A stretch of DNA of 64,000 nt from NCBI GenBank assembly GCA_002189035.1, contig NEEC01000011.1:3348001-3412000 (forward strand), written 5' to 3'. Positions 632 to 61,183 of this stretch are shown piece by piece. The notes under the pieces are model-generated. The model made no database searches and was not told the origin of the DNA. It worked only from the letters and a program-made list of their open reading frames with translations. This DNA is from Utricularia gibba. Lineage: Eukaryota; Streptophyta; Magnoliopsida; Lamiales; Lentibulariaceae. The first letter of the stretch is position 1; each line of letters begins with the position of its first letter. The position numbers and the translations under genes were made by a program.

Positions 632-644
632 ATTCGACGCGAAT
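632..644. other. Dyad ATTCG-ACG-CGAAT (representative copy)
   Basis: A perfect 5-bp inverted repeat with a 3-base centre, 36 bp to the right of the GCCAC dyad. It is intact in monomers with the CGATTCGACGCGAATGG tail. In K-tailed monomers the right arm is CAAAT and the left flank becomes CAATTCG, so the dyad is broken. The two monomer classes thus differ in this potential site. Confidence 0.65.
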
Positions 645-28218: not shown

Positions 28219-28560
28219 GGAAGGTGTGAAATTTTTGTTTTGAGGCGATCCCTTACAATGCCACGGTTGTGTTCCAACCCACACCTGATGAAGGCCTCGT
28301 GCACCATTCCGTATTTTCTCGATATCTTGAAACCGTGATGAGCCACGTTGCGCACGACACACCGTTTCGAAGCTCATTCCAGGGCGGTCATCTTCCGTTT
28401 TTGAAGCTTCGTCGTCCGACAATATATCAGAGCTCGAATTATTGCCTTATATTACCCTTCAATTGTGCCACAAAGTGGCCACGACGTTCGATGATGCGAC
28501 CTCGGACTTCCGATTCGACGCGAATGGGATTTCTCGCTTTCAAAACATATGGATTTCATT

Positions 28561-29931: not shown

Positions 29932-30229
29932 GGAAGGTGTGAAATTTTCGTTTTTGAGGCGATCCCTTACAATGCCACGGTTGTGTTCCAACCCACACCT
30001 GATGCAGGCCTCGTGCACCATTCCGTATTTTTCGATATCTTGAAACCGTGATGAGCCACGTTCGCACGACACACCGTTTCGAAGCTCATTCCAGGGCGGT
30101 CATCTTCCGTTTTTGAAGCTTCGTCGTTCCGACAATATATCAGAGCTCGAATTATTGCCTTATATTACCCTTCAATTGTGCCACAAAGTGGCCACGACGT
30201 TCTCGCATTCAAGACATATGGATTTCATT
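29932..30229 (+). repeat. Truncated monomer (298 bp), single clean deletion
   Basis: The copy is normal until GGCCACGACGTT at about 30200 and then continues directly as CTCGCATTCAAGACATATGG. About 45 bp spanning CGCGATGATGCGAC through GAATGGG is missing. Both sides of the break carry a TTC or TTCTC-like stretch (GTTCGCG and TTTCTCGC), so a short-homology deletion is plausible. The sequence to its right follows the GTATG/GAACCC/GTAAATATC type. Confidence 0.88.
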
Positions 30230-35329: not shown

Positions 35330-35632
35330 GGAAGGTGTGAAATTTTTGTTTTTGAGGCGATCCCTTACAATGCACGGTTGTGTTCCAACCCACACCTGAT
35401 GGGCCTCGTGCACCATTCCGTATTTTATCGATATCTTGAAACCGTGATGAGCCACGTAACGACACAAAAGCTCATTCCGGTCATCTTCCGTTTTGGAAGC
35501 TTGTCCGACAATTATCAGAGCTGAATTATTGCCTTATATTACCTTCAATTGTGCCACAAAGTGGCCACGACGTTCGCGATGATGCGACATTCGACGAATG
35601 GATTTCTCGCTTTCAAACATATGCATTTCATT
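35330..35632 (+). repeat. Truncated monomer (303 bp), multiple gaps
   Basis: Losses include GATGGGCC for GATGCAGGCC near 35398, a CACGTAACGACACAAAAGC box near 35456, GGAAGCTTGTCCGACAATTATC near 35500 and GCGACATTCGACGAATGG near 35585, which removes the CTCGGACTTCCG stretch. The ATCGATATC box is retained. It starts a stretch of generally short monomers. Confidence 0.85.
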
Positions 35633-38600
35633 GGAAGGTGTGAAATTTTTGTTTTTGAGGCGATCCTTACAATGCCACGGTTGTGTTCCAACCCACACCT
35701 GATGAGGCCTCGTGCACCATTCCGTATTTTTCGATATCTTGAAACCGTGATGAGCCACGTTGCGCACGACACACCGTTTCGAAGCTCATTCCAGGCGGTC
35801 ATCTTCCGTTTTTGAAGCTTCGTCGTCCGACGATATATCAGAGCTCGAATTATTGCCTTATATTACCTTCAATTGTGCCACAAAGTGGCCACGACGTTCG
35901 CGATGATGCGACTCGGACTTCCGATTCGACGCGAATGGATTTCTCGCTTTCAAACATATGCATTTCATTGGAAGGTGTGAAATTTTTGTTTTTGAGGCGA
36001 TCCCTTACAATGCCGGTGTGTTCCAACCCACACCTGATGCAGGCCTCGTGCACCATTCCGTATTTTAAATATCTTGAAAACCGTGATGAGCCACGTTGCA
36101 CACGACACACCGTTTCGAAGCTCATTCCAGGCGGTCATCTTCCGTTTTGAAGCTTCGTCGTCCGACAATGTATCAGAGCTCGAATTATTGCCTTATATTA
36201 GCCTTCAATTGTGCCAAAAGTGGCCACGACGTTCGCGATGATGCGACTCGGCTTCCATTCGACGCGAATGGATTTCTCGCTTCAAGATATGCATTTCATT
36301 GGAAGGTGTGAAATTTTTTTTGAGGCGATCCCTTACAATGCCACGGTGTGTTCCAACCCACACCTGATGCAGGCCTCGTGCACCATTCCGTATTTTCGAT
36401 ATCTTGAAAACCGTGATGAGCCACGTTGCACACGACACACCGTTTCGAAGCTCATTCCGAGGCGTCATCTTCCGTTTTGAAGCTTCGTCGTCGACAATAT
36501 ATCAGAGCTCGAATTATTGCCTTATATTAGCCTTCAATTGTGCCACAAAGTGGCCACGACGTTCGCGATGATGCGACTCGGACTTCCGATTCGACGCGAA
36601 TGGGTTTTCTCGCTTCAGACATATGGATTTCATTGGAAGGTGTGAAATTTTTGTTTTAGAGGCGATCCCTTACAATGCCACGGTGTTTCCAACCCACACC
36701 TGATGCAGGCCTCGTGCACCATTCCGTATTTTAATATCTTGAAAACCGTGATGAGCCTTGTTGCACGACACACCGTTTCGAAGCTCATTCCAGGCGGTCA
36801 TCTTCCGTTTTTGAAGCTTCGTCGTCGACAATATCAGAGCTCGAATTATTGCCTTATATTAGCCTTCAATTGTGCCACAAAGTGGCCACGACGTTCGCGA
36901 TGATGCGACTCGGGCTTCCAATTCGACGCAAATGTGATTTCTCGCTTGCAAAACATATGCATTTCATTGGAAGGTGTGAAATTTTGTTTTAGAGGCGATC
37001 CCTTACAATGCCACGGTGTGTTCCAACCCACACCTGATGCAGGCCTCGTGCACCATTCCGTATTTTGTAAATATCTTGAAAACCGTGATGAGCCACGTTG
37101 CACGACACACCGTTTCGAAGCTCATTCCAGGGCGGTCATCTTCCGTTTTTGAAGCTTCGTCGTCCGACAATATATCAGAGCTCGAATTATTGCCTTATAT
37201 TAGCCTTCAATTGTGCCACAAAGTGGCCACGACGTTCGCGATGATGCGACCTCGGACTTCCGATTCGACGCGAATGGATTTTCGCTTCAAAACATATGGA
37301 TTTCATTGGAAGGTGTGAAATTTTTGTTTTTGAGGCGATCCCTTACAATGCACGGTTGTGTTCCAACCCACACCTGATGCAGGCCTCGTGCACCATTCCG
37401 TATTTTGTCGATATCTTGAAAACCGTGATGAGCCACGTTGCACACGACACACCGTTCGAAGCTCATTCAGGCGGTCATCTTCCGTTTTGAAGCTTTGTCG
37501 TCGACATGTATCAGAGCTCGAATTATTGCCTTATATTAGCCTTCAATTGTGCCACAAAGTGGCCACGACGTTCGCGATGATGCGACTCGGACTTCCGATT
37601 CGACGCGAATGGGTTTTCTCGCTTCAACATATGGATTTCATTGGAAGGTGTGAAATTTTTGTTTTAGAGGCGATCCCTTACAATGCCACGGTTTCCAACC
37701 CACACCTGATGCAGGCCTCGTGCACCATTCCGTATTTTGTAAATATCTTGAAAACCGTGATGAGCCGTTGTCACGTTTCGAAGCTCATTCCAGAGCGGTC
37801 ATCTTCCGTTTTGAAGCTTCGTCGTCCGACATGTATCAGAGCTCGAATTATTGCCTTATATTAGCCTTCAATTGTGCCACAAAGTGGCCACGACGTTCGC
37901 GATGATGCGACTCGGGGCTTCCGATTCGACGCGAATGGATTTCTCGCTTCAAACATATGCATTTCATTGGAAGGTGTGAAATTTTGTTTTTAGAGGCGAT
38001 CCCTTACAATGCCACGGTGTGTTCCAACCCACACCTGATGCAGGCCTCGTGCACCATTCCGTATTTTGTAAATATCTTGAAACCGTGATGAGCCTTGTTG
38101 CCACACACACCGTTTCGAAGCTCATTCCAGGGCGGTCATCTTCCGTTTTTGAAGCTTCGTCGTCCGACAATATATCAGAGCTCGAATTATTGCCTTATAT
38201 TAGCCTTCAATTGTGCCACAAAGTGGCCACGACGTTCGCGATGATGCGACTCGGGGCTTCCAATTCGACGCAAATGTGATTTCTCGCTTGCAAAACATGC
38301 ATTTCATTGGAAGGTGTGAAATTTTGTTTTGAGGCGATCCCTTACAATGCCACGGTTGTGTTCCAACCCACACCTGATGCAGGCCTCGTGCACCATTCCG
38401 TATTTTATCGATATCTTGAAAACCGTGATGAGCCACGTTGCACACGACACACCGTTTCGAAGCTCATTCCAGGCGGTCATCTTCCGTTTTGAAGCTTCGT
38501 CGTCCGACGATGTATCAGAGCTCGAATTATTGCCTTATATTACCTTCAATTGTGCCACAAAGTGGCCACGACGTTCGCGATGATGCGACCTCGGACTTCC

Positions 38601-41600
38601 GATTCGACGCGAATGGGTTTTCGCATTCAAGAATATGGATTTCATTGGAAGGTATGAAATTTTTTTTGAGGCGAACCCTTACAATGCCACGGTTGTGTTC
38701 CAACCCACACCTGATGCAGGCCTCGTGCACCATTCCGTATTTTAATATCTTGAAACCGTGATGAGCCTTGTTGCACACGACACACCGTTTCGAAGCTCAT
38801 TCCAGAGCGGTCATCTTCCGTTTTGAAGCTTCGTCGTCCGACGATGTATCAGAGCTCGAATTATTGCCTTATATTAGCCTTCAATTGTGCCACAAAGTGG
38901 CCACGACGTTCGCGATGATGCGACTCGGGGCTTCCAATTCGACGCAAATGTGATTTCTCGCTTGCAAATATGCATTTCATTGGAAGGTGTGAAATTTTTG
39001 TTTTTGAGGCGATCCCTTACAATGCACGGTTGTGTTCCAACCCACACCTGATGCAGGCCTCGTGCACCATTCCGTATTTTGTCGATATCTTGAAACCGTG
39101 ATGAGCCGTTGTTGAAGCTCATTCAGGCGGTCATCTTCCGTTTTGGAAGCTTCGTCGTCCGACGATGTATCAGAGCTCGAATTATTGCCTTATATTAGCC
39201 TTCAATTGTGCCACAAAGTGGCCACGACGTTCGCGATGATGCGACCTCGGACTTCCGATTCGACGCGAATGGGTTTTCTCGCTTCAAACATATGGATTTC
39301 ATTGGAAGGTATGAAATTTTTTTTAGAGGCGATCCCTTACAATGCCACGGTGTGTTCCAACCCACACCTGATGCAGGCCTCGTGCACCATTCCGTATTTT
39401 GTAAATATCTTGAAAACCGTGATGAGCCGTTGCACACGACACACCGTTTCGAAGCTCATTCCAGAGCGGTCATCTTCCGTTTTTGAAGCTTCGTCGTCCG
39501 ACGATGTATCAGAGCTCGAATTATTGCCTTATATTAGCCTTCAATTGTGCCACAAAGTGGCCACGACGTTCGCGATGATGCGACTCGGACTTCCGATTCG
39601 ACGCAATGGATTTCTCGCTTGCAAAACATATGCATTTCATTGGAAGGTGTGAAATTTTTGTTTTTGAGGCGATCCCTTACAATGCCACGGTTGTGTTCCA
39701 ACCCACACCTGATGCAGGCCTCGTGCACCATTCCGTATTTTTCGATATCTTGAAAACCGTGATGAGCCACGTTGCACACGACACACCGTTTCGAAGCTCA
39801 TTCCGAGGCGGTCATCTTCCGTTTTGAAGCTTCGTCGTCCGACGATGTATCAGAGCTCGAATTATTGCCTTATATTAGCCTTCAATTGTGCCACAAAGTG
39901 GCCACGACGTTCGCGATGATGCGACTCGGGACTTCCGATTCGACGCAAATGTGATTTTCGCTTGCAAAAATATGCATTTCATTGGAAGGTGTGAAATTTT
40001 TGTTTTGAGGCGATCCCTTACAATGCACGGTGTGTTTCCAACCCACACCTGATGCAGGCCTCGTGCACCATTCCGTATTTTGTCGATATCTTGAAAACCG
40101 TGATGAGCCGTTGCACACGACACACCGTTTCGAAGCTCATTCCAGAGCGGTCATCTTCCGTTTTTGAAGCTTCGTCGTCGACATGTATCAGAGCTCGAAT
40201 TATTGCCTTATATTAGCCTTCAATTGTGCCACAAAGTGGCCACGACGTTCGCGATGATGCGACTCGGGGCTTCCGATTCGACGCGAATGTGGATTTCTCG
40301 CTTTCAAACATATGCATTTCATTGGAAGGTGTGAAATTTTTGTTTTTGAGGCGATCCCTTACAATGCCACGGTTGTGTTCCAACCCACACCTGATGCAGG
40401 CCTCGTGCACCATTCCGTATTTTGTCGATATCTTGAAAACCGTGATGAGCCGTTGCGCACGACACACCGTTTCGAAGCTCATTCCAGGCGGTCATCTTCC
40501 GTTTTTGAAGCTTCGTCGTCCGACGATGTATCAGAGCTCGAATTATTGCCTTATATTACCTTCAATTGTGCCACAAAGTGGCCACGACGTTCGCGATGAT
40601 GCGACCTCGGACTTCCGATTCGACGCGAATGGGTTTCTCGCTTCAAACATATGGATTTCATTGGAAGGTGTGAAATTTTTGTTTTGAGGCGATCCCTTAC
40701 AATGCCACGGTTGTGTTCCAACCCACACCTGATGCAGGCCTCGTGCACCATTCCGTATTTTGTCGATATCTTGAAAACCGTGATGAGCCGTTGCACACGA
40801 CACACCGTTTCGAAGCTCATTCCGAGCGGTCATCTTCCGTTTTGAAGCTTCGTCGTCCGACGATGTATCAGAGCTCGAATTATTGCCTTATATTAGCCTT
40901 CAATTGTGCCACAAAGTGGCCACGACGTTCGCGATGATGCGACTCGGACTTCCGATTCGACGCGAATGGGTTTCTCGCATTCAAGAATATGCATTTCATT
41001 GGAAGGTGAAATTTTTTTTAGAGGCGAACCCTTACAATGCCACGGTTGTGTTCCAACCCACACCTGATGCAGGCCTCGTGCACCATTCCGTATTTTGTAA
41101 ATATCTTGAAAACCGTGATGAGCCTTGTTGCACACGACACACCGTTTCGAAGCTCATTCCAGAGCGGTCATCTTCCGTTTTTGAAGCTTCGTCGTCCGAC
41201 GATGTATCAGAGCTCGAATTATTGCCTTATATTAGCCTTCAATTGTGCCACAAAGTGGCCACGACGTACGCGATGATGCGACTCGGGGCTTCCAATTCGA
41301 CGCAAATGTGATTTCTCGCTTGCAAAAGATATGCATTTCATTGGAAGGTGTGAAATTTTTGTTTTGAGGCGATCCCTTACAATGCCGGTTGTGTTCCAAC
41401 CCACACCTGATGCAGGCCTCGTGCACCATTCCGTATTTTATCGATATCTTGAAACCGTGATGAGCCACGTTGCACACGACACACCGTTTCGAAGCTCATT
41501 CCAGGGCGGTCATCTTCCGTTTTGGAAGCTTCTCGTCCGACAATATATCAGAGCTCGAATTATTGCCTTATATTACCCTTCAATTGTGCCACAAAGTGGC

Positions 41601-42355
41601 CACGACGTTCGCGATGATGCGACCTCGGACTTTCGATTCGACGCGAATGGGATTTCTCGCTTTCAAAACATATGGATTTCATTGGAAGGTGTGAAATTTT
41701 TGTTTTTGAGGCGATCCCTTACAATGCCACGGTTGTGTTCCAACCCACACCTGATGCAGGCCTCGTGCACCATTCCGTATTTTCGATATCTTGAAACGTG
41801 ATGAGCCACGTTGCACACGACACACCGTTTCGAAGCTCATTCCAGGCGGTCATCTTCCGTTTTTGAAGCTTCGTCGTCCGACGATGTATCAGAGCTCGAA
41901 TTATTGCCTTATATTAGCCTTCAATTGTGCCACAAAGTGGCCACGACGTTCGCGATGATGCGACTCGGGCTTCCAATTCGACGCAAATGTGATTTCTCGC
42001 TTGCAAAACATGCATTTCATTGGAAGGTGTGAAATTTTTGTTTTTGAGGCGATCCCTTACAATGCCACGGTTGTGTTCCAACCCACCTGATGCAGGCCTC
42101 GTGCACCATTCCGTATTTTATCGATATCTTGAAACCGTGATGAGCCACGTACACGAACACCCGTTTCGAAGCTCATTCCGAGGCGGTCATCTTCCGTTTT
42201 CAAGCTTTGTCGTTCGACAATATATCAGAGCTCGAATTATTGCCTTATATTAGCCTTCAATTGTGCCACAAAGTGGCCACGACGTTCGCGATGATGCGAC
42301 CGGACTTCGATTCGACGCGAATGGTTTTCTCGCTTCAAGACATATGGATTTCATT

Positions 42356-45105
42356 GGAAGGTATGAAATTTTTGTTTTAGAGGCGAACCCTTACAATGCC
42401 ACGGTGTGTTCCAACCCACACCTGATGCAGGCCTCGTGCACCATTCCGTATTTTGTAAATATCTTGAAAACCGTGATGAGCCTTGTTGCACACGACACAC
42501 CGTTTCGAAGCTCATTCCAGAGCGGTCATCTTCCGTTTTTGAAGCTTCGTCGTCCGACGATGTATCAGAGATCGAATTATTGCCTTATATTAGCCTTCAA
42601 TTGTGCCACAAAGTGGCCACGACGTACGCGATGATGCGACTCGGGGCTTCCAATTCGACGCAAATGTGATTTCTCGCTTGCAAAAGATATGCATTTCATT
42701 GGAAGGTGTGAAATTTTTTTTTTGAGGCGATCCCTTACAATGCACGGTTGTGTTCCAACCCACACCTGATGAAGGCCTCGTGCACCATTCCGTATTTTAT
42801 CGATATCTTGAAAACCGTGATGAGCCACGTTTGCACACGACACACCGTGTCGAAGCTCATTCCGAGGCGGTCATCTTCCGTTTTGCAAGCTTTGTCGTTC
42901 GACGATGTATCAGAGCTCGAATTATTGCCTTATATAGCCTTCAATTGTGCCACAAAGTGGCCACGACGTTCGCGATGATGCGACCTCGGACTTCCGATTC
43001 GACGCGAATGGGTTTTCTCGCATTCAAGACATATGGATTTCATTGGAAGGTATGAAATTTTTTTTTAGAGGCGAACCCTTACAATGCCACGAGTGTGTTC
43101 CAACCCACACCTGATGCAGGCCTCGTGCACCATTCCGTATTTTGTAAATATCTTGAAAACCGTGATGAGCCTTGTTGCAGACACACAAACTTTCATCATT
43201 CCAGAGCGGTCATCTTCCGTTTTTGAAGCTTCGTCGTCCGACGATGTATCAGAGATCGAATTATTGCCTTATATTAGCCTTCAATTGTGCCACAAAGTGG
43301 CCACGACGTACGCGATGATGCGACTCGGGGCTTCCAATTAGACGCAAATGTGATTTCTCGCTTGCAAAAGTTATGCATTTCATTGGAAGGTGTGAAATTT
43401 TTGTTTTTGAGGCGATCCCTTACAATGGCACGGTTGTGTTCCAACCCACACCTGATGCAGGCCTCGTGCACCATTCCGTATTTTATCGATATCTTGAAAC
43501 CGTGATGAGCCACGTAGCGTACGACACACGTTTAAAAGCTCATTCTAGGGCGGTCATCTTCCGTTTTGGAAGCTTCATTGTCCGACAATATATCAGAGCT
43601 GGAATTATTGCCTTATATTACCCTTCAATTGTGCCAAAAAAAGTGGCCACGACGTTCGCGATGATGCGACCGGGACTTCCGATTCGACGCGAATGGGATT
43701 TCTCGCTTTCAAAACATATGCATTTCATTGGAAGGTGTGAAATTTTTCGTTTTTGAGGCGATCCCTTACAATGCCACGGTTGTGTTCCAACCCACACTGA
43801 TGAAGGCCTCGTGCACCATTCCGTATTTTCTCGATATCTTGAATACCGTGATGAGCCTTGTTGCACACGACACCGTTTCGAAGCTCATTCCAGAGCGGTC
43901 ATCTTCCGTTTTTGAAGCTTCGTCGTCCGACGATGTATCAGAGATCGAATTATTGCCTTATATTAGCCTTCAATTGTGCCACAAAGTGGCCACGACGTAC
44001 GCGATGATGCGACTCGGGGCTTCCAATTCGACGCAAATGTGATTTCTCGCTTGCAAAAGATATGCATTTCATTGGAAGGTGTGAAATTTTTGTTTTGAGG
44101 CGATCCCTTACAATGCCACGGTTGTGTTCCAACCCACACCTGATGAAGGCCTCGTGCACCATTCCGTATTTTATCGATATCTTGAAAACCGTGATGAGCC
44201 ACGTTGCACACGACACACCGTGTCGAAGCTCATTCCGAGGCGGTCATCTTCCGTTTTGCAAGCTTTGTCGTTCGACGATGTATCAGAGCTCGAATTATTG
44301 CCTTATATTAGCCTTCAATTGTGCCACAAGTGGCCACGACGTTCGCGATGATGCGACCTCGGACTTCCGATTCGACGCGAATGGGTTTTCTCGCATTCAA
44401 GACATATGGATTTCATTGGAAGGTATGAAATTTTTGTTTTAGAGGCGAACCCTTACAATGCCACGGTTGTGTTCCAACCCACACCTGATGCAGGCCTCGT
44501 GCACCATTCCGTATTTTGTAAATATCTTGAAAACCGTGATGAGCACACACACGACACACCGTTTCGAAGCTCATTCTAGAGCGGTCATCTTCCGTTTTTG
44601 AAGCTTCGTCGTCCGACGATGTATTAGAGCTCGAATAATTTCCTTATATTACCCTTCAATTGTGCCACAAAGTTGCCACACGACGTTCGCGATGATGCGA
44701 CTCGGGGCTTCCAATTCGACGCAAATGTGATTTCTCGCTTGCAAAACACATGCATTTCATTGGAAGGTGTGAAATTTTCGTTTTAGAGGCGATCCTTACA
44801 ATGCCACGGTTGTGTCCAACCCACACCTGATGTAGGCCTCGTGCACCATTCCGTATTTTATCGATATCTTGAAAACCGTGATGAGCCACGTTTCACACGA
44901 CACACCGTTTCGAAGCTCATTCCAGGGCGGTCATCTTCTGTTTTTGAAGCTTCGTCGTTCGACAATATATCAGAGCTCGAATAATTTCCTTCTATTACCC
45001 TTCAATTGTGCCACAAAGTGGCCACGACGTTCGCGATGATGCGACCTCGGACTTCCGATTCGACGCGAATTGGATTTCTCGCTTTCAAAACATATGCATT
45101 TCATT
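42356..45105 (+). repeat. Eight-monomer segmental duplication, left copy
   Basis: These eight monomers (2750 bp) include four-monomer block copy 1 and correspond in order to 49226-51977. The shared flanking markers are two K/T-type members with GAGATCG and CACCGTGTCG on the left. On the right are a member with TCTAGAGCGG, GATGTATTAGAGC, AATAATTTCC and CAAAACACATGC (start 44418) and a member with GATGTAGG and CGTTTCACACG (start 44762). The offset between the copies is about 6.87 kb. Confidence 0.75.
43045..44417 (+). repeat. Four-monomer higher-order block, copy 1
   Basis: The four members start at 43045, 43385, 43730 and 44074 (1373 bp). Member 1 has GTAAATATC, AGAGCGG, GAGATCG, ACGTACGCG, ATTAGACGC and a tail with CAAAAGTTATGC. 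Member 2 has GGCACGG, ATCGATATC, CGTAGCGTACG, TCTAGGGCGG, TTCATTGTCCG and GAGCTGG. Member 3 has the shortened CACACTGATGAAGG, CTCGATATC and CTTGAATACC. Member 4 has ATCGATATC, CACCGTGTCG, GAGGCGG, TTTGCAAGCTTTG and a tail GGGTTTTCTCGCATTCAAG. In member 1 the GCACACGACACACCG box is locally garbled near 43180-43200. Confidence 0.88.
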
Positions 45106-47849
45106 GGAAGGTGTGAAATTTTCGTTTTAGAGGCGATCCCTTACAATGCCACGAGTGTGTTCCAACCCACACCTGATGCAGGCCTCGTGCACCATTCCGT
45201 ATTTTGTAAATATCTTGAAAACCGTGATGAGCCTTGTTGCACACGACACACCGTTTCGAAGCTCATTCCAGAGCGGTCATCTTCCGTTTTTGAAGCTTCG
45301 TCGTCCGACGATGTATCAGAGATCGAATTATTGCCTTATATTAGCCTTCAATTGTGCCACAAAGTGGCCACGACGTACGCGATGATGCGACTCGGCTTCC
45401 AATTCGACGCAAATGTGATTTCTCGCTTGCAAAAGATATGCATTTCATTGGAAGGTGTGAAATTTTTGTTTTTGAGGCGATCCCTTACAATGGCACGGTT
45501 GTGTTCCAACCCACACCTGATGCAGGCCTCGTGCACCATTCCGTATTTTATCGATATCTTGAAACCGTGATGAGCCACGTTGACACACCACCGCCGTTTC
45601 GAAGCTCATTCCGAGGCAGTCATCTTCCGTTTCGCAAGCTTTGTCGTTCGACAATATATCAGAGCTCGAATTATTGCCTTATATTAGCCTTCAATTGTGC
45701 CACAAAGTGGCCACGACGTTCGCGATGATGCGACCTCGGACTTCCGATTCGACGCGAATGGGTTTTCTCGCATTCAAGACATATGGATTTCATTGGAAGG
45801 TGTGAAATTTTTGTTTTAGAGGCGAACCCTTACAATGCCACGAGTGTGTTCCAACCCACACCTGATGCAGGCCTCGTGCACCATTCCGTATTTTGTAATA
45901 TCTTGAAACCGTGATGAGCCTTGTTGCACACGACACACCGTTCGAGCTCATTCCAGAGCGGTCATCTTCCGTTTTTGAAGCTTCGTCGTCCGACGATGTA
46001 TCAGAGCTCGAATTATTGCCTTATATTAGCCTTCAATTGTGCCACAAAGTGGCCACGACGTACGCGATGATGCGACTCGGGGCTTCCAATTCGACGCAAA
46101 TGTGATTTCTCGCTTGCAAAACACATGAATTTCATTGGAAGGTGTGAAATTTTCGTTTTAGAGGCGATCCCTTACAATGCCACGAGTGTGTTCCAACCCA
46201 CACCTGATGCAGGCCTCGTGCACCATTCTGTATTTTGTAAATATCTTGAAAACGTGATGAGCCTTGTTGCACGCACGTTTCGAAGCTCATTCCAGGGCGG
46301 TCATCTTCTGTTTTTGAAGCTTCGTCGTCCGACAATATATCAGACCTCGAATTATTGCCTTATATTACCCTTCAATTGTGCCACAAAGTGGCCACGACGT
46401 TCGCGATGATGCGACTCGGGGCTTCCAATTCGACGCAAATGTGATTTCTCGCTTGCAAAACATGCATTTCATTGGAAGGTGTGAAATTTTTGTTTTTGAG
46501 GCGATCCCTTACAATGGCACGGTTGTGTTCCAACCCACACCTGATGCAGGCCTCGTGCACCATTCCGTATTTTATCGATATCTTGAAAACCGTGATGAGC
46601 CACGTTTCACACGACACACCGTTCGAAGCTCATTCCGAGGCGGTCATCTTCCGTTTTGCAAGCTTTGTCGTTCGACGATGTATCAGAGCTCGAATTATTG
46701 CCTTATATTAGCCTTCAATTGTGCCACAAAGTGGCCACGACGTTCGCGATGATGCGACCTCGGACTTCCGATTCGACGCGAATGGGTTTTCTCGCATTCA
46801 AGACATATGGATTTCATTGGAAGGTATGAAATTTTGTTTTTAGAGGCGAACCCTTACAATGCCACGAGTGTGTTCCAACCCACACCTGATGCAGGCCTCG
46901 TGCACCATTCCGTATTTTGTAAATATCTTGAAAACCGTGATGAGCCTTGTTGCACACGACACACCGTTTCGAAGCTCATTCCAGAGCGGTCATCTTCCGT
47001 TTTTGAAGCTTCGTCGTCCGACGATGTATCAGAGCTCGAATTATTGCCTTATATTAGCCTTCAATTGTGCCACAAAGTGGCCACGACGTACGCGATGATG
47101 CGACTCGGGGCTTCCAATTCGACGCAAATGTGATTTCTCGCTTTCAAAACATATGCATTTCATTGGAAGGTGTGAAATTTTTCGTTTTTGAGGCGATCCC
47201 TTACAATGCCACGGTTGTGTACCAACCCACACCTGATGAAGGCCTCGTGCACCATTCCGTATTTTCTCGATATCTTGAATACCGTGATGAGCCACGTTGC
47301 GCACGACACACCCGTTTCGAAGCTCATTTTGAGGCAGTCATCTTCCGTTTTGGAAGCTTCGTCGTCCGACGATGTATTAGAGCTCGAATTATTGCCTTAT
47401 ATTACCCTTCAATTGTGCCAAAGTGGCCACGCGTGCGCGACGACTCGGACTTCCGATTCGACGCGAATGGGTTTTCTCGCATTCAAGACATATGGATTTC
47501 ATTGGAAGGTATGAAATTCTTGTTTTAGAGGCGAACCCTTACAATGCCACGAGTGTGTTCCAACCCACACCTGATGCAGGCCTCGTGCACCATTCCGTAT
47601 TTTGTAAATATCTTGAAAACCGTGATGAGCCTTGTTGCACACGACACACCGTTTCGAAGCTCATTCCAGAGCGGTCATCTTCCGTTTTGAAGCTTCGTCG
47701 TCCGACGATGTATCAGAGCTCGAATTATTGCCTTATATTACCCTTCAATTGTGCCACAAAGTGGCCACGACGTTCGCGATGATGCGACCTCGGACTTCCG
47801 ATTCGACGCGAAATGGGTTTTCTCGCATTCAAGACATATGGATTTCATT

Positions 47850-49225
47850 GGAAGGTATGAAATTTTTGTTTAAGAGGCGAACCCTTACAATGCCACGGTT
47901 GTGTTCCAACCCACACCTGATGCAGGCCTCGTGCACCATTCCGTATTTTGCAAATATCTTGAAAACCGTGATGAGCCTTGTTGCACACTTTCGCCAAAGC
48001 TCATTCCAGAGCGGTCATCTTCCGTTTTTGAAGCTTCGTCGTCCGACGATGTATCAGAGATCGAATTATTGCCTTATATTAGCCTTCAATTGTGCCACAA
48101 AGTGGCCACGACGTACGCGATGATGCGACTCGGGGCTTCCAATTAGACGCAAATGTGATTTTCTCGCTTGCAAAAGTTATGCATTTCATTGGAAGGTGTG
48201 AAATTTTTGTTTTTGAGGCGATCCCTTACAATGGCACGGTTGTGTTCCAACCCACACCTGATGCAGGCCTCGTGCACCATTCCGTATTTTATCGATATCT
48301 TGAAAACCGTGATGAGCCACGTAGCGTACGACACACTGTTTAAAGCTCATTCTAGGGCGGTCATCTTCCGTTTTGGAAGCTTCATTGTCCGACAATATAT
48401 CAGAGCTGGAATTATTGCCTTATATTACCCTTCAATTGTGCCAAAAAGTGGCCACGACGTTCGCGATGATGCGACCTCGGACTTCCGATTCGACGCGAAT
48501 GGGATTTCTCGCTTTCAAAACATATGGATTTCATTGGAAGGTGTGAAATTTTTCGTTTTTGAGGCGATCCCTTACAATGCCACGGTTGTGTTCCAACCCA
48601 CACTGATGAAGGCCTCGTGCACCATTCCGTATTTTCTCGATATCTTGAATACCGTGATGAGCCACGTTGCGCACGACACACCGTTTCGAAGCTCATTCCA
48701 GGGCGGTCATCTTCCGTTTTTGAAGCTTCGTCGTCCGACAATATATCAGAGCTCGAATAATTTCCTTATATTACCCTTCAATTGTGCCACAAAGATGCCA
48801 CGACGTTCGCGATGATGCGACTCGGGGCTTCCAATTCGACGCAAATGTGATTTCTCGCTTGCAAAACATATGCATTTCATTGGAAGGTGTGAAATTTTTG
48901 TTTTTGAGGCGATCCCTTACAATGCCACGGTTGTGTTCCAACCCACACCTGATGAGGCCTCGTGCACCATTCCGTATTTTATCGATATCTTGAAAACCGT
49001 GATGAGCCACGTTTGACACGACACACCGTTCGAAGCTCATTCCGAGGCGGTCATCTTCCGTTTTGCAAGCTTTGTCGTTCGACGATGTATCAGAGCTCGA
49101 ATTATTGCCTTATATTAGCCTTCAATTGTGCCACAAAGTGGCCACGACGTTCGCGATGATGCGACCTCGGACTTCCGATTCGACGCGAATGGGTTTTCTC
49201 GCATTCAAGACATATGGATTTCATT
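47850..49225 (+). repeat. Four-monomer higher-order block, copy 2
   Basis: Members start at 47850, 48191, 48536 and 48882 (1376 bp). They show the same marker order as copy 1: ATTAGACGC plus CAAAAGTTATGC, then CGTAGCGTACG plus GAGCTGG, then CACACTGATGAAGG plus CTTGAATACC, then TTTGCAAGCTTTG plus the GCATTCAAG tail. Member 3 differs from copy 1 in its second half: it has AGGGCGG, AATATATC, GAATAATTTCC and AAAGATGCC, where copy 1 has AGAGCGG, GATGTATC and GAGATCG. This looks like gene-conversion-like patching or a separate branch. Confidence 0.87.
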
Positions 49226-51977
49226 GGAAGGTATGAAATTTTTGTTTTAGAGGCGAACCCTTACAATGCCACGTGTGTTCCAACCCACACCTGATGCAGG
49301 CCTCGTGCACCATTCCGTATTTTCTCGATATCTTGAATACCGTGATGAGCCTTGTTGCACACGACACACCACCGTTTCGAAGCTCATTCCAGAGCGGTCA
49401 TCTTCCGTTTTTGAAGCTTCGTCGTCCGACGATGTATCAGAGATCGAATTATTGCCTTATATTAGCCTTCAATTGTGCCACAAAGTGGCCACGACGTACG
49501 CGATGATGCGACTCGGGGCTTCCAATTCGACGCAAATGTGATTTCTCGCTTGCAAAAGATATGCATTTCATTGGAAGGTGTGAAATTTTTGTTTTTGAGG
49601 CGATCCCTTACAATGCCACGGTTGTGTTCCAACCCACACCTGATGAAGGCCTCGTGCACCATTCCGTATTTTATCGATATCTTGAAAACCGTGATGAGCC
49701 ACGTTTGACACGACACACCGTGTCGAAGCTCATTCCGAGGCGGTCATCTTCTGTTTTGCGCTTTGTCGTTCGACGATGTATCAGAGCTCGAATTATTGCC
49801 TTATATTAGCCTTCAATTGTGCCACAAAGTGGCCACGACGTTCGCATGATGCGACCTCGGACTTCCGATTCGACGCGAATGGGTTTCTCGCATTCAAGAC
49901 ATATGGATTTCATTGGAAGGTATGAAATTTTTGTTTTAGAGGCGAACCCTTACAATGCCACGAGTGTGTTCCAACCCACACCTGATGCAGGCCTCGTGCA
50001 CCATTCCGTATTTTGTAAATATCTTGAAAACCGTGATGAGCCTTGTTGCACACGACACACACACCGTTTCGAAGCTCATTCCAGAGCGGTCATCTTCCGT
50101 TTTTGAAGCTTCGTCGTCCGACGATGTATCAGAGATCGAATTATTGCCTTATATTAGCCTTCAATTGTGCACAAAGTGGCCACGACGTACGCGATGATGC
50201 GACTCGGGGCTTCCAATTAGACGCAAATGTGATTTCTCGCTTGCAAAAGTTATGCATTTCATTGGAAGGTGTGAAATTTTTGTTTTTGAGGCGATCCCTT
50301 ACAATGGCACGGTTGTGTTCCAACCCATGCAGGCATGCACCTTCCGTATTTTATCGATATCTTGAAACCGTGATGAGCCACGTAGCGTACGACACACTGT
50401 TTAAAAAGCTCATTCTAGGGCGGTCATCTTCCGTTTTGGAAGCTTCATTGTCCGACAATATATCAGAGCTGGAATTATTGCCTTATATTACCCTTCAATT
50501 GTGCCAAAAGTGGCCACGACGTTCGCGATGATGATGCGACCTCGGACTTCCGATTCGACGCGAATGGGATTTCTCGCTTTCAAAACATATGCATTTCATT
50601 GGAAGGTGTGAAATTTTTCGTTTTTGAGGCGATCCCTTACAATGCCACGGTTGTGTTCCAACCCACATCTGATGAAGGCCTCGTGCACCATTCCGTATTT
50701 TCTCGATATCTTGAATACCGTGATGAGCCTTGTTGCACACGACACACCGTTTCGAAGCTCATTCCAGAGCGGTCATCTTCCGTTTTTGAAGCTTCGTCGT
50801 CCGACGATGTATCAGAGATCGAATTATTGCCTTATATTAGCCTTCAATTGTGCCACAAAGTGGCCACGACGTACGCGATGATGCGACTCGGGGCTTCCAA
50901 TTCGACGCAAATGTGATTTCTCGCTTGCAAAAGATATGCATTTCATTGGAAGGTGTGAAATTTTTGTTTTTGAGGGCGATCCCTTACAATGCCACGGTTG
51001 TGTTCCAACCCACACCTGATGAAGGCCTCGTGCACCATTCCGTATTTTATCGATATCTTGAAAACCGTGATGAGCCACGTTTGACACGACACACCGTGTC
51101 GAAGCTCATTCCGAGGCGGTCATCTTCCGTTTTGCAAGCTTTGTCGTTCGACGATGTATCAGAGCTCGAATTATTGCCTTATATTAGCCTTCAATTGTGC
51201 CACAAAGTGCCACGACGTTCGCGATGATGCCTCGGACTTTCCGATTCGACGCGAATGGGTTTTCTCGCATTCAAGACATATGGATTTCATTGGAAGGTAT
51301 GAAATTTTTGTTTTAGAGGCGAACCCTTACAATGCCACGGTTGTGTTCCAACCCACACCTGATGCAGGCCTCGTGCACCATTCCCGTATTTTGTAATATC
51401 TTGAAAACCGTGATGAGCCTTGTTGCACACGACACACACGCACCGTTTCGAAGCTCATTCTAGAGCGGTCATCTTCCGTTTTTGAAGCTTCGTCGTCCGA
51501 CGATGTATTAGAGCTCGAATAATTTCCTTATATTACCTTCAATTGTGCCACAAAGTGCCACGACGTTCGCGATGATGCGACTCGGGGCTTCCAATTCGAC
51601 GCAAATGTGATTTCTCGCTTGCAAAACACATGCATTTCATTGGAAGGTGTGAAATTTTTGTTTTAGAGGCGATCCCTTACAATGCCACGGTTGTGTTCCA
51701 ACCCACACCTGATGTAGGCCTCGTGCACCATTCCGTATTTTATCGATATCTTGAAAACCGTGATGAGCCACGTTTCACACGACACACCGTTTCGAAGCTC
51801 ATTCCGAGGCGGTCATCTTCCGTTTTCAAGCTTTGTCATTCGACAATATATCAGAGCTCGAATTATTGCCTTATTTAGCCTTCAATTGTGCCACAAAAAC
51901 GACGTTCGCGATGATGCGACCTCGGACTTCCGATTCGACGCGAATGTTTTCTCGCATTCAAACATATGGATTTCATT
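49226..51977 (+). repeat. Eight-monomer segmental duplication, right copy
   Basis: This 2752-bp segment is the partner of 42356-45105, two bases longer in total. The TCTAGAGCGG/GATGTATTAG/CAAAACACATGC member starts at 51292 and the GATGTAGG member at 51642. The first member differs from its partner in having CTCGATATC with CTTGAATACC instead of GTAAATATC, so the similarity is weaker at the left end. The GCACACGACACACCG box is expanded by a few CA or ACC units in three members here. Confidence 0.75.
49915..51291 (+). repeat. Four-monomer higher-order block, copy 3
   Basis: Members start at 49915, 50264, 50601 and 50948 (1377 bp). The marker order is that of copies 1 and 2. Member 2 has a private local defect near 50330 (CCCATGCAGGCATGCACC, with the CACACCTG stretch lost). 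Member 3 has CACATCTGATGAAGG and CTTGAATACC, and like copy 1 has AGAGCGG and GAGATCG. Copies 1 and 3 therefore look closer to each other than to copy 2, although copies 2 and 3 are physically nearer. Confidence 0.87.
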
Positions 51978-52322
51978 GGAAGGTATGAAATTTTTGTTTA
52001 GAGGCGAACCCTTACAATGCCACGGTGTGTTCCAACCCACACCTGATGCAGGCCTCGTGCACCATTCCGTATTTTGTAAATATCTTGAAAACCGTGATGA
52101 GCCTTGTTGCACACGACACACCGTTTCGAAGCTCATTCCAGAGCGGTCATCTTCCGTTTTTGAAGCTTCGTCGTCCGACGATGTATCAGAGCTCGAATTA
52201 TTGCCTTATATTAGCCTTCAATTGTGCCACAAAGTGGCCACGACGTTACGCGATGATGCGACTCGGGGCTTCCAATTCGACGCAAATGTGATTTCTCGCT
52301 TGCAAAACATATGCATTTCATT

Positions 52323-53343
52323 GGAAGGTGTGAAATTTTTGTTTTTGAGGCGATCCCTTACAATGCCACGGTTGTGTTCCAACCCACACCTGATGCAGGC
52401 CTCGTGCACCATTCCGTATTTTATCGATATCTTGAAAACCGTGATGAGCCACGTTTGCACACGACACACCGTTTCGAAGCTCATTCCAGGCGGTCATCTT
52501 CCGTTTTGGAAGCTTTCGTCCGACGATGTATCAGAGCTCGAATTATTGCCTTATATTAGCCTTCAATTGTGCCACAAAGTGGCCACGACGTTCGCGATGA
52601 TGCGACCTCGGACTTCCGATTCGACGCGAATGGATTTCTCGCTTCAAACATATGATTTCATTGGAAGGTGTGAAATTTTTGTTTTAGAGGCGAACCCTTA
52701 CAATGCACGGTGTGTTCCAACCCACACCTGATGCAGGCCTCGTGCACCATTCCGTATTTTGTCGATATCTTGAAAACCGTGATGAGCCGTTGCACACGAC
52801 ACACCGTTTCGAAGCTCATTCCAGAGCGGTCATCTTCCGTTTTTGAAGCTTCGTCGTCCGACGATGTATCAGAGCTCGAATTATTGCCTTATATTAGCCT
52901 TCAATTGTGCCACAAAGTGGCCACGACGTTCGCGATGATGCGACTCGGGGCTTCCGATTCGACGCGAATGGATTTCTCGCTTTCAAAAACATATGCATTT
53001 CATTGGAAGGTGTGAAATTTTTCGTTTTTGAGGCGATCCCTTACAATGCCACGGTTGTGTTCCAACCCACACCTGATGAAGGCCTCGTGCACCATTCCGT
53101 ATTTTGTCGATATCTTGAAACCGTGATGAGCCACGTTGCGCACGACACACCGTTTCGAAGCTCATTCCGGCGGTCATCTTCCGTTTTGAAGCTTCGTCGT
53201 CCGACAATGTATCAGAGCTCGAATTATTGCCTTATATTACCCTTCAATTGTGCCACAAAGTGGCCACGACGTTCGCGATGATGCGACTCGGACTTCCGAT
53301 TCGACGCGAATGGATTTCTCGCTTCAAACATATGGATTTCATT
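52323..53343 (+). repeat. Three regular monomers right of subarray III
   Basis: Starts 52323, 52663 and 53005. Variants typical of subarray III (CACGAGTG, CTTGAATACC, GTACGCG) are no longer present. The copies have ATCGATATC, GTCGATATC with GAACCC, and GTCGATATC with GATGAAGG and a CGTTTTTGAGG tract, resembling subarray I and II copies. The block is normal in length (340, 342, 339 bp). Confidence 0.85.
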
Positions 53344-53946
53344 GGAAGGTGTGAAATTTTCGGTTAGAGGCGATCCCTTACAATGCCACGGTGTGTTCCA
53401 ACCCACACCTGATGCAGGCCTCGTGCACCATTCCGTATTTTATATCTTGAAAACCGTGATGAGCCTTTGCCACGACACACCGTTTCGAAGCTCATTCCGA
53501 GGCGGTCATCTTCCGTTTTGAAGCTTCGTCGTCCGACGATGTATCAGAGCTCGAATTATTGCCTTATATTACCTTCAATTGTGCCACAAAGTGGCCACGA
53601 CGTCGCGATGATGCGACGACTTCGACGACAAATGACATGGATTTCTCGCTTCAAACGGTTGTGTTCCAACCCACACCTGATGCAGGCCTCGTGCACCATT
53701 CCGTATTTTGAATATCTTGAAAACCGTGATGAGCCGTTGCAACGACACACCGTTTCGAAGCTCATTCCAGAGCGGTCATCTTCCGTTTTTGAAGCTTCGT
53801 CGTCCGACGATGTATCAGAGCTCGAATTATTGCCTTATATTAGCCTTCAATTGTGCCACAAAGTGGCCACGACGTTCGCGATGATGCGACTCGGGGCTTC
53901 CATTCGACGCAAATTGATTTCTCGCTTGCAAAATATGCATTTCATT
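53344..53946 (+). repeat. Truncated pair of monomers with an internal join
   Basis: The first unit (start 53344) has CGGTTAGAGG in place of the T tract and a shortened TTTTATATC box. Near 53617-53640 its tail is replaced by GACTTCGACGACAAATGACATGG. At about 53656 CTCGCTTCAAAC joins GGTTGTGTTCC, so the next unit lacks the start from CATATG through GCCAC, about 60 bp. The second unit then runs normally to a K-like tail at about 53930. Confidence 0.83.
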
Positions 53947-54274
53947 GGAAGGTGTGAAATTTTTTTTGAGGCGATCCCTTACAATGCACGGTTGTGTTCC
54001 AACCCACACCTGATGCAGGCTCGTGCACCATTCCGTATTTTATCGATATCTTGAAAACCGTGATGAGCCACGTTGCCACGACACACGTTTCGAAGCTCAT
54101 TCGGCGGTCATCTTCCGTTTGAAGCTTTCGTCCGACAATATATCAGAGCTCGAATTATTGCCTTATATTAGCCTTCAATTGTGCCACAAAGTGGCCACGA
54201 CGTTCGCGATGATGCGACTCGGACTTCCGATTCGACGCGAATGGGTTTCTCGCTTTCAAAACATGGATTTCATT
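53947..54274 (+). repeat. Short monomer (328 bp)
   Basis: An ATCGATATC copy with many one-base losses: a run TTTTTTTGAGG, GCACGG, GCAGGCTCG, GTTGCCACG, ACACACGTTTCG, TTCGGCGG and GAAGCTTTCGTCCG. The order of boxes is normal. Confidence 0.88.
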
Positions 54275-54832
54275 GGAAGGTGAAATTTTTCGTTTTTGAG
54301 GCGATCCCTTACAATGCCACGGTTGTGTTCCAGAGAAGGCTCGTGCAATTATTGCCCGTGATGATTGCGCATTAGCTCATTCCGGGCGGTCATCTTCCGT
54401 TTCGAAGCTTGTCGTCCGACATATATCAGAGCTCGAATATTGCCTTATATTAGCCTTCAATTGTGCCACAAAGTGGCCACGACGTTCGCGATGATGCGAC
54501 TCGGGCTTCCAATTCGACGCAAATGGATTTCTCGCTTCAAAACATATGATTTCATTGGAAGGTGTGAAATTTTCGTTTTTGAGGCGATCCCTTACAATGC
54601 CACGGTTGTGTTCCAACCCACACCTGATGAGGCCTCGTGCACCATTCCGTATTTTTAATATCTTGAAAACCGTGATGAGCCTTTGCGCACGACACACCGT
54701 TTCGAAGCTCAGGCGGTCATCTTCCGTTTTGAAGCTTTGTCGTTCGACAATGAAATTTTTTATTAAATTGTGCCAGGGCGAATGATGCCTCGGACTTCCG
54801 ATTCGACGCGAATGCCACATATGGATTTCATT
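54275..54832 (+). repeat. Two internally deleted monomers (282 and 276 bp)
   Basis: In the first (start 54275), TGTTCCA at about 54331 joins GAGAAGGCTCGTGC, and a reshuffled stretch with AATTATTGCCCGTGATG runs to about 54372 before AGCTCATTCC resumes. In the second (start 54557), GAAGCTC joins AGGCGG near 54710. At about 54750 the ACAATG of the GTCGTTCGACAATG box runs into AAATTTTTTATTAAATTGTGCCAGGGCG, which skips most of the CAGAGCTCG-to-GATGATG region. Pieces come from the monomer itself. Confidence 0.83.
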
Positions 54833-56183
54833 GGAAGGTGTGAAATTTTTTTTTAGAGGCGATCCCTTACAATGCCACGGTGTGTTCCAACCCACACCTG
54901 ATGCAGGCCTCGTGCACCATTCCGTATTTTGTATATCTTGAAAACCGTGATGAGCCGTTGCACACGACACACCGTTTCGAAGCTCATTCCAGCGGTCATC
55001 TTCCGTTTTTGAAGCTTCGTCGTCCGACGATGTATCAGAGCTCGAATTATTGCCTTATATTAGCCTTCAATTGTGCCACAAAGTGGCCACGACGTTCGCG
55101 ATGATGCGACTCGGGGCTTCCATTCGACGCAATGGATTTCTCGCTTCAAAACATATGCATTTCATTGGAAGGTGTGAAATTTTTGTTTTGAGGCGATCCC
55201 TTACAATGCCACGGTTGTGTTCCAACCCACACCTGATGCAGGCTCGTGCACCATTCCGTATTTTTCGATATCTTGAAAACCGTGATGAGCCACGTCACGA
55301 CACACCGTTTCGAAGCTCATTCCGGCGGTCATCTTCCGTTTTGAAGCTTCGTCGTTCGACAATGTATCAGAGCTCGAATTATTGCCTTATATTACCCTTC
55401 AATTGTGCCACAAAGTGGCCACGACGTTCGCGATGATGCGACCTCGGACTTCCGATTCGACGCGAATGGTTTTCTCGCTTCAAAACATATGGATTTCATT
55501 GGAAGGTATGAAATTTTTGTTTTAGAGGCGAACCCTTACAATGCCACGGTGTGTTCCAACCCACACCTGATGCAGGCCTCGTGCACCATTCCGTATTTTG
55601 TAAATATCTTGAAAACCGTGATGAGCCTTGTTGCACACGACACACCGTTTCGAAGCTCATTCCAGAGCGGTCATCTTCCGTTTTTGAAGCTTCGTCGTCC
55701 GACGATGTATCAGAGCTCGAATTATTGCCTTATATTAGCCTTCAATTGTGCCACAAAGTGGCCACGACGTCGCGATGATGCGACTCGGGCTTCCAATTCG
55801 ACGCAAATGTGATTTCTCGCTTGCAAAACATATGCATTTCATTGGAAGGTGTGAAATTTTTGTTTTTGAGGCGATCCCTTACAATGCACGGTTGTGTTCC
55901 AACCCACACCTGATGCAGGCCTCGTGCACCATTCCGTATTTTTCGATATCTTGAAAACCGTGATGAGCCACGTTGCACACGACACACCGTTTCGAAGCTC
56001 ATTCCGAGCGGTCATCTTCCGTTTTGAAGCTTCGTCGTCCGACGATGTATCAGAGCTCGAATTATTGCCTTATATTAGCCTTCAATTGTGCCACAAAGTG
56101 GCCACGACGTTCGCGATGATGCGACCTCGGACTTCCGATTCGACGCGAATGGTTTCTCGCTTTCAAAACATATGCATTTCATT
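54833..56183 (+). repeat. Four near-regular monomers between damaged ones
   Basis: Starts 54833, 55167, 55501 and 55844 (lengths 334, 334, 343, 340). The copy at 55501 has GTATG, GAACCC, GTAAATATC, CCTTGTTGCACACG, AGAGCGG, ACGTCGCG and a K tail, closely resembling the GTAAATATC copies at 4774 and 22477. The others carry scattered one-base losses. Confidence 0.86.
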
Positions 56184-57437
56184 GGAAGGTGTGAAATTTT
56201 TGTTTTTGAGGCGATCCCTTACAATGCCACGGTTGTGTTCCAACCCACACCTGATGAAGGCCTCGTGCACCATTCCGTATTTTTATCGATATCTTGAAAA
56301 CCGTGATGAGCCACGTTGCGCACACGTTTCGACTCATTCCACCGTTTCGACGAGCTCATTCCGAATTGTGCCACAAAGTGGCCACGACGTTCGCGATGAT
56401 GCGACTCGGGCTCCGTTTTCGAAGCATTTCATTGTCGTTCAATGACAATGATGATCAGTAGCTCTTGAATGATGATTTGCCTTATATTAGCGGTCATCTT
56501 CCGTTTTGAAGCTTGTGTCCACGAATCAGTGCCTTACGACGTTTCGCGATGATGCGACCTCGGACTTCCGATTCGACGCGAATGGGTTTTCTCGCATTCA
56601 AAACATATGGATTTCATTGGAAGGGTGAAATTTTGTTTTAGAGGCGCCCTTACAATGCCACGGTTGTGTTCCAACCCACACCTGATGCAGGCCTCGTGCA
56701 CCATTCCGTATTTTGTAAATATCTTGAAAACCGTGATGAGCCGTTGCACACGACACACCGTTTCGAAGCTCATTCCAGGCGGTCATCTTCCGTTTTTGAA
56801 GCTTCGTCGTCCGACGATGTATCAGAGCTCGAATTATTGCCTTATATTAGCCTTCAATTGTGCCACAAAGTGGCCACGACGTTCGCGATGATGCGACTCG
56901 GACGTCCGACGATGACAGAGCGATCGAATTATTGCATTCATATTAGCCTATGGATTTTGTGGAAAGGTGTGAAATGTGGCCACGACGTTCGCGATGATGC
57001 GACCTCGGACTTCCAATGCGACGGAATGTGATTTCCGAACAATGCCACACCTGATGCAGGCCTCGTGCACCATTCCGTATTTATCGAAGTATGTTGAAAA
57101 CCGTTTTGAGCCACGTTTCACACGATCCCTTACCGTGCCACGTTTCGTGAGCTCATTCGACGCCACACCATCAGGCCTCAACCATTCCGTATTTTTCGAT
57201 ATCTTGAAAACCGTGATGAGCCACGTTCACACGACACACCGTTTCGAAGCTCATTCCGAGCGGTCATCTTCCGTTTTGAAGCTTTGTCGTCCGACAATAT
57301 ATCAGAGCTCGAATTATTGCCTTATATTAGCCTTCAATTGTGCCACAAAGTGGCCACGACGTTCGCGATGATGCGACCTCGGACTTCCGATTCGACGCGA
57401 ATGGGTTTTCTCGCATTCAAGACATATGGATTTCATT
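56184..57437 (+). repeat. Mosaic zone of shuffled monomer fragments
   Basis: The anchor boxes at 56184, 56619, 56961 (GGAAAGG) and 57438 are 435, 342 and 477 bp apart. From about 56320, the GTTTCGA.CTCATTCC segment is repeated in altered form, then joins AATTGTGCCACAAAG. From about 56410 to 56540 a run of short pieces includes a hairpin, GATGATCAGTAGCTC and TCCACGAATCAGTGCC. At about 56903, CTCGGACGTCCGACGATG joins the GATGATGCG and TCGTCCGACGATG segments. From 56961 to 57190 fragments of several parts of the unit are interleaved (GAAATGTGGCCACG, CCGAACAATGCC, TTATCGAAGTATGTTG, CACGATCCCTTACCG, CACCATCAGGCC). Regular sequence resumes at about 57180 with AACCATTCCG. Very little looks foreign. 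Confidence 0.82.
56429..56451. other. Perfect 8-bp inverted repeat (hairpin) in the mosaic zone
   Basis: TCATTGTC at 56429-56436 is separated by the 7-base spacer GTTCAAT from its exact reverse complement GACAATGA at 56444-56451. The normal monomer has no such structure at this place. The arms resemble pieces of ATTTCATTG and GACAATAT from two different parts of the unit, or a local fold-back copy. It lies at the centre of the most scrambled stretch. Confidence 0.85.
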
Positions 57438-58374
57438 GGAAGGTATGAAATTTTTGTTTAAGAGGCGAACCCTTACAATGCCACGGTTGTGTTCCAACCC
57501 ACACCTGATGCAGGCCTCGTGCACCATTCCGTATTTTGTATATCTTGAAAACCGTGATGAGCCCGTTGCACACGACACACCGTTTCGAAGCTCATTCCAG
57601 GCGGTCATCTTCCGTTTTGAAGCTTCGTCGTCCGACGATGTATCAGAGCTCGAATATTGCCTTATATTAGCCTTCAATTGTGCCACAAAGTGGCCACGAC
57701 GTACGCGATGATGCGACTCGGGGCTTCCAATTCGACGCAAATGTGATTTCTCGCTTGCAAAACATATGCATTTCATTGGAAGGTGTGAAATTTTTGTTTT
57801 TGAGGCGATCCCTTACAATGCCACGGTTGTTCCAACCCACACCTGATGCAGGCCTCGTGCACCATTCCGTATTTTATCGATATCTTGAAAACCGTGATGA
57901 GCCACGTTTCGCACGACACACCGTTTCGAAGCTCATTCCGAGGCGGTCATCTTCCGTTTTGAAGCTTTGTCGTCCGACAATATCAGAGCTCGAATTATTG
58001 CCTTATATTAGCCTTCAATTGTGCCACAAAGTGGCCACGACGTTCGCGATGATGCGACCTCGGACTTCCGATTCGACGCGAATGGTTTTCTCGCATTCAA
58101 ACATATGGATTTCATTGGAAGGTGTGAAATTTTTGTTTTAGAGGCGAACCCTTACAATGCCACGGTGTGTTCCAACCCACACCTGATGCAGGCCTCGTGC
58201 ACCATTCCGTATTTTGTCGATATCTTGAAAACCGTGATGAGCCGTTGCACACGACACACCGTTTCGAAGCTCATTCCAGAGCGGTCATCTTCCGTTTTGA
58301 AGCTTCGTCGTCCGACGATGTATCAGAGCTCGAATTATTGCCTATATTAGCCTTCAATTGTGCCACAAAGTGGC

Positions 58375-58460
58375 CACGACGTCGCGATGATGCGACTGTG
58401 CAAATTTCGGATGAGGTGTTCCGATTCGACGCGAATTTTTCTCGTTTATGGATTTCATTG
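58375..58460 (+). repeat. Small scrambled join in an otherwise regular monomer
   Basis: After ACGTCGCGATGATGCGACT at about 58397, the stretch GTGCAAATTTCGGATGAGGTG replaces the usual CGGACT before TCCGATTCGACGCG. The tail is shortened to AATTTTTCTCGTTTATGG. The insert of about 20 bp is not an obvious piece of the unit. The rest of the monomer (start 58117) is normal. Confidence 0.75.
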
Positions 58461-60841: not shown

Positions 60842-61183
60842 GGAAGGTGTGAAATTTTTGTTTTGAGGCGATCCCTTACAATGCCACGGTGTGTTCCAAC
60901 CCACACCTGATGCAGGCCTCGTGCACCATTCCGTATTTTATCGATATCTTGAAACCGTGATGAGCCACGTAGCGTACGACACACTATTTCGAAGCTCATT
61001 CTAGGGCGGTCATCTTCCGTTTTGGAAGCTTCATCGTCCGACAATATATCAGAGCTGGAATTATTGCCTTATATTACCCTTCAATTGTGCCAAAAGTGGC
61101 CACGACGTTCGCGATGATGCGACCTCGGACTTCCGATTCGACGCGAATGGGATTTCTCGCTTTCAAAACATATGGATTTCATT
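60842..61183 (+). repeat. Isolated copy of a subarray III monomer type
   Basis: This ATCGATATC monomer carries CACGTAGCGTACG, TTCTAGGGCGG, TTCATCGTCCG and GAGCTGG, the linked marker set otherwise seen only in member 2 of the three four-monomer blocks (starts 43385, 48191, 50264). Here the neighbours are not the usual members 1 and 3, although the preceding unit ends in CAAAAGATATGC. It sits about 10.6 kb from the nearest relative. Confidence 0.8.

What the first reader, a model, noticed from the sequence alone, without database searches (positions are those of the whole stretch)
42356..51977. Four-monomer block present three times, nested in an eight-monomer duplication
Blocks at 43045, 47850 and 49915 (1373, 1376 and 1377 bp) share an ordered series of rare linked variants: ATTAGACGC, CGTAGCGTACG with GAGCTGG, CTTGAATACC, and TTTGCAAGCTTTG. 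Flanking monomers extend the first and third into a duplication of about 2.75 kb, offset by 6.87 kb. This suggests recent unequal exchange on a longer period than in the rest of the array.
Basis: seen in the sequence. Interest (0 to 1): 0.65.

Follow-up and report, generated by a model that had tools for sequence, protein, structure and literature searches.

The report
Local duplications inside a plant satellite
A stretch of eight 346-bp repeat units in a plant satellite array was copied about 6.9 kb along the array, and half of it once more in between; this is the ordinary way such arrays turn over, and a draft assembly with many deletion errors partly blurs it.

Summary
The duplication is real at the level of substitutions. 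Monomers 42016-44755 and 48876-51635 (eight each, 20 monomers apart, 6.86 kb) differ by 12 substitutions in all, 0-4 per monomer. Random window pairs differ by 10.7 and neighbours by 12.6; no shuffle in 2000 gave such a run. The four-monomer block occurs a third time (47844-49219), but its third monomer matches only over its first 134 bp. One marker (TCCAATTAGACGCAAATG) occurs exactly three times in the 100-Mb assembly, once per block. The claim of a period longer than elsewhere is not supported. This stretch is an A/B dimer array, so all good offsets are even. The same 130-kb array holds 492 block pairs of three or more monomers, five of them eight or longer. The strongest is a tandem octamer outside the window (C255:3323717-3331560). 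Most 1-10 bp length differences are consensus errors: deletions do not track relatedness and nearly vanish at the unique edge. Ordinary satellite turnover (local duplication plus conversion-like patches) is the best reading. An assembler duplication is not excluded without reads. The host is a plant, probably Utricularia gibba.

The parts
42016..44755 (+). Copy 1 of the eight-monomer duplication (break points lie between 41940 and 42220 on the left and between 44755 and about 44924 on the right)
   Evidence: lag-20 diagonal: 2,4,1,1,2,0,2,0 substitutions per monomer, flanks 9-15
48876..51635 (+). Copy 2 of the eight-monomer duplication, 6.86 kb downstream
43039..44411 (+). Four-monomer block 1 (two A/B dimers)
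   Evidence: marker ATTAGACGC at 43337
47844..49219 (+). Four-monomer block 2, mosaic: third monomer matches the others only over its first 134 bp
   Evidence: marker at 48142
48664..48870 (+). Patch in block 2 with 14 substitutions against blocks 1 and 3, sharp edges; conversion-like
   Evidence: nearest relatives elsewhere still differ by 3 or more
49909..51285 (+). Four-monomer block 3
   Evidence: marker at 50216
34982..35626 (+). Two-monomer fourth relative of the first half of the block
   Evidence: 2.1-4.2 substitutions to blocks 1-3; flanking pairs mostly 11-18 apart, one (34639 vs 42695) at 6
40995..51971 (+). Dimeric (A/B) stretch of unusually diverse monomers that holds all copies
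   Evidence: mean differences at odd lags 26.2, at even lags 18.3 (40900-52000)
1..64000 (+). 346-bp satellite array, all head to tail; part of a 130-kb array that runs from C255:3294177 to the contig end

Best explanation
The window lies inside a 130-kb array of a 346-bp plant satellite. In a stretch where two monomer types alternate (dimers of about 690 bp), one recent event copied eight monomers (four dimers, about 2.8 kb) to a place 20 monomers away, by out-of-register recombination between sister chromatids or homologues, or by an equivalent break-repair copying event. A related earlier or parallel event placed two of these dimers 14 monomers away. A short conversion-like patch then replaced the end of one monomer in that middle copy, and two further groups of linked variants changed near the left end of the long duplication. 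Shown here: the copies, their limits, their closeness, the even register, the mosaic patch. Inferred: the recombination mechanism, the order of events, that the assembly is right at this place.
For: Low substitution on one diagonal with sharp edges. Marker of 18 bases found three times in the whole assembly, once in each block. Even register of all good offsets (6, 14, 20, 26, 28 monomers). Many other block duplications in the same array, 492 pairs against about 210-220 in shuffles, so the process is general. Deletions in the two copies are independent: 6 shared and 64 private positions, the same ratio as for random local pairs.
Against: No reads, no second assembly: read depth and spanning reads were not examined. 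The array holds stretches of scrambled consensus (17.7-19.7, 53.3-57.4 kb), so the assembly is weak nearby. With shuffles over the whole array, which include its homogeneous parts, runs of eight or nine pairs also arise by chance (maximum 9-10); only the shuffle confined to this stretch is decisive.
Confidence: 0.75

Rival explanations
1. Assembly artefact: reads from one genomic block were laid down twice (or a correction step mixed reads of different places), giving an apparent duplication and an apparent mosaic monomer.
For: Draft consensus with 3-7 deletion events per monomer inside the array against about 1 at the unique edge; scrambled segments nearby; if this is the published assembly, mean read length was 10.4 kb (PMC5793159), barely the 9.6 kb needed to span both copies.
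Against: Error patterns of the two copies are independent. The left end of the duplication carries linked real variants (positions 106/108/109/120 and 204/207 of two monomers) that differ between copies. Flanks on both sides are different sequences. This stretch has more real variants and fewer deletions than most of the interior, so reads are easier to place here.
Confidence: 0.2
2. Gene conversion, not unequal exchange, copied the block from one place of the array to the other without change of array length (a sub-case of the best explanation: the duplication is real, the mechanism differs).
For: Patches inside monomers with sharp edges are present (48664-48870; four linked variants in monomer 49220).
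Against: The main tract is about 2.8 kb and in register over eight monomers, long for an ordinary conversion tract (general knowledge). Not excluded.
Confidence: 0.3
3. Chance similarity among monomers of a homogeneous family.
For: Low-variation parts of the array do give long runs by chance (null maximum 9-10 in whole-array shuffles).
Against: The local background is the most diverse of the array interior (lag 1 mean 26 differences, lag 20 mean 7) and no local shuffle in 2000 reaches the run; a three-times-only marker tracks it.
Confidence: 0.02

Closest known systems
Block-pair higher-order repeats of Arabidopsis CEN178 as annotated by TRASH (PMC10199239)
   Same: Pairs of blocks of three or more consecutive monomers with at most five differences per monomer, at many different offsets, within a mostly monomeric array; meets that working definition.
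   Different: Monomer 346 bp instead of 178; no evidence of CENH3; assembly quality far lower; only substitutions were counted here.
AB-dimer higher-order repeats of plant satellites, e.g. Sorghum bicolor (Melters et al. 2013, PMC4053949)
   Same: Two monomer types alternate, so even offsets are closer than odd ones.
   Different: Only local here (clearest at 41-52 kb), mixed with irregular order elsewhere.
Human alpha-satellite higher-order repeats
   Same: Multi-monomer blocks more alike than neighbouring monomers.
   Different: No single period homogenised over the array; the three blocks are isolated local copies.

Membership tests
Tandem satellite DNA | Long head-to-tail array of a monomer of fixed length without coding function | tested here: met
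   365 anchors over 130 kb, one orientation, base period 346; no Rfam or tRNA match in the window; two chance frames in edge monomers have no Pfam match
Higher-order repeat block pair (TRASH definition: >=3 monomers, <=5 differences each) | Same-order blocks with high monomer-by-monomer similarity | tested here: met
   eight monomers with 0-4 substitutions
Regular higher-order repeat array (alpha-satellite type) | One multi-monomer unit repeated in tandem over the array | tested here: not met
   copies are 6, 14 and 20 monomers apart with unrelated flanks; no common period in lag spectra except the dimer
Centromeric satellite | Occupied by CENH3 nucleosomes or at the primary constriction | not testable with these tools
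   no chromatin or cytology; exact 24-mer not listed on any contig before C239, among them C3, which has telomere repeats at its start and near 5.35 Mb
Recent duplication by unequal exchange | Copy number supported by reads and array length changed by the event | not testable with these tools
   no reads or second individual available

The most novel reading that the evidence does not exclude
If the genome is Utricularia gibba, whose centromeric regions are described as lacking satellite repeats (PMC8333044), then roughly half a megabase of a 346-bp satellite confined to one large contig end and a few pure-satellite contigs could mark a satellite-based centromere or heterochromatic block on one or a few chromosomes only, that is, a species with mixed centromere types.
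Probability: 0.12. Interest if true: 0.5.

Novelty: new member of a known kind. Interest (0 to 1): 0.17.

Why it matters
The duplication is a clean small example of how satellite arrays grow and stay alike, with a marker that occurs three times in the genome. The same analysis gives a caution: inside this array most indels are consensus errors, so block lengths, percentages that include indels, and 'indel evolution' from this draft should not be trusted; substitutions can be.

Tried and rejected
Plain percent identity with indels: rejected as a measure, since pairs with at most one substitution have nearly as many private deletion positions (7.5) as pairs with fifteen or more (8.3). MAFFT-only distances: replaced by pairwise alignments because misplaced gaps made false substitutions. 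Search for the eight-monomer block in other satellite contigs: none; best run four monomers (only parts of those contigs were read). Donor for the patch in the middle block: none closer than three differences. Relation to the tandem octamer upstream: single monomers alike, order different. A 173-bp half-repeat inside the 346-bp monomer: best ungapped self-shift 30% identity, no support. Small-subunit rRNA search for species identity: the service failed twice. The assembly paper itself is not in the library.

Full report
WHERE IT IS. The window is bases 3,348,001-3,412,000 of a contig (C255) of 3,424,836 bp in an assembly of 100.09 Mb and 516 contigs. A satellite of about 346 bp, all in one orientation, runs from C255:3,294,177 to the contig end, 130 kb. 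The unique flank holds a dirigent gene and pectinesterase exons, and TTTAGGG telomere repeats are at contig ends, so this is a land plant. The exact 24-mer TTTCATTGGAAGGTRTGAAATTTT occurs 1261 times; a 104-base variant is on C239, C255, C265, C274, C282, C287 and C306 only. All stretches of C239, C265, C274, C282 and C287 that I read are pure satellite.

INDELS ARE MOSTLY ERRORS. At the unique edge the spacing is 345-347 almost without exception, although those monomers carry 24-26 substitutions against the consensus; inside, spacing falls to about 334-345, with 3-7 deletions against 0.2-1.4 insertions per monomer, mostly in runs of one base. Pairs of monomers with at most one substitution have 7.5 private deletion positions on average, pairs with fifteen or more have 8.3, edge pairs 2.1. 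Deletions thus do not follow descent.

THE OBSERVATION. Pairwise alignments of the window's monomers give a mean of 10.7 substitutions for random pairs and 12.6 for neighbours. On the diagonal 20 monomers off, eight consecutive pairs (42016-44755 vs 48876-51635) have 2, 4, 1, 1, 2, 0, 2, 0; the two pairs before have 9-10 and the pair after 15. The four-monomer block is found again at 47844-49219 with 4, 2, 14, 2 substitutions to block 1. The fourteen all lie after position 134 of the third monomer, and the next monomer matches again: a patch with sharp edges. A shorter relative, two monomers, is at 34982-35626. The 18-mer TCCAATTAGACGCAAATG occurs three times in the assembly, once per block; the other markers also occur elsewhere. 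In 2000 shuffles of the local monomers that keep the A/B parity, no run reached five pairs at four or fewer, or eight at seven or fewer, differences.

STRUCTURE AROUND IT. The stretch 41-52 kb is an alternation of two monomer types: mean differences 26 at odd and 18 at even offsets, and all good offsets are even. It is the most diverse part of the array interior and has fewer deletions than most of the rest, as expected if reads can be placed better where variants are denser.

IS THE PERIOD SPECIAL? No. With the block-pair rule of TRASH (PMC10199239; three or more monomers, five or fewer differences, here substitutions only) the C255 array has 492 block pairs, against 209-222 in shuffles. Five runs are of eight or more monomers, at offsets 8, 16, 20, 27 and 57. 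The longest is a tandem octamer at C255:3,323,717-3,331,560, just outside the window, sixteen pairs with 0-4 differences. The present case stands out because its background is diverse, not because its scale is unique.

MECHANISM. Out-of-register recombination or break-repair copying of four dimers, plus conversion-like patches, explains copies, register and mosaics. It is the general account of satellite turnover (slippage, unequal crossing-over, conversion; cited in PMC10199239). What is shown is the sequence pattern; the mechanism is inferred. An assembler duplication is less likely, since the two copies carry independent errors (6 shared, 64 private deletion positions), but only reads can settle it.

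VERDICT. A real, recent, ordinary local duplication in a plant satellite array, with corrected limits; new as a sequence, not as a kind.

Noticed in passing
C255:3323717-3331560 (loci L014, L015), upstream of the window: A tandem octamer higher-order repeat: eight-monomer unit of about 2.74 kb, about three copies in a row with 0-4 substitutions per monomer, closer than the duplication given to me.
   Followed up: partly
window 17742-19655, 53338-54816, 56178-57431: Scrambled, shortened satellite monomers with pieces out of order; looks like poor consensus or mis-joined reads rather than biology.
   Followed up: partly
whole assembly; C239, C255, C265, C274, C282, C287, C306: The 346-bp satellite (1261 exact 24-mer hits, roughly half a megabase by extrapolation) is not listed by exact 24-mer on C1-C238; if this is Utricularia gibba, its centromeric regions have been described as lacking satellite repeats (PMC8333044).
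   Followed up: partly
C255:3288001-3300000 (loci L011, L012): The unique edge of the array: monomers become more diverged towards the flank while spacing stays near 346 bp, a gradient of homogenisation and a built-in control for assembly errors.
   Followed up: yes
C255:1-2000 (locus L027): The other end of the contig is a different GC-rich tandem repeat of about 160 bp with an A-rich tract, possibly a ribosomal spacer repeat.
   Followed up: no
window, every monomer: The 13-base word TTCATTGGAAGGT, used as the monomer anchor, is kept exactly in nearly every monomer of the array.
   Followed up: no
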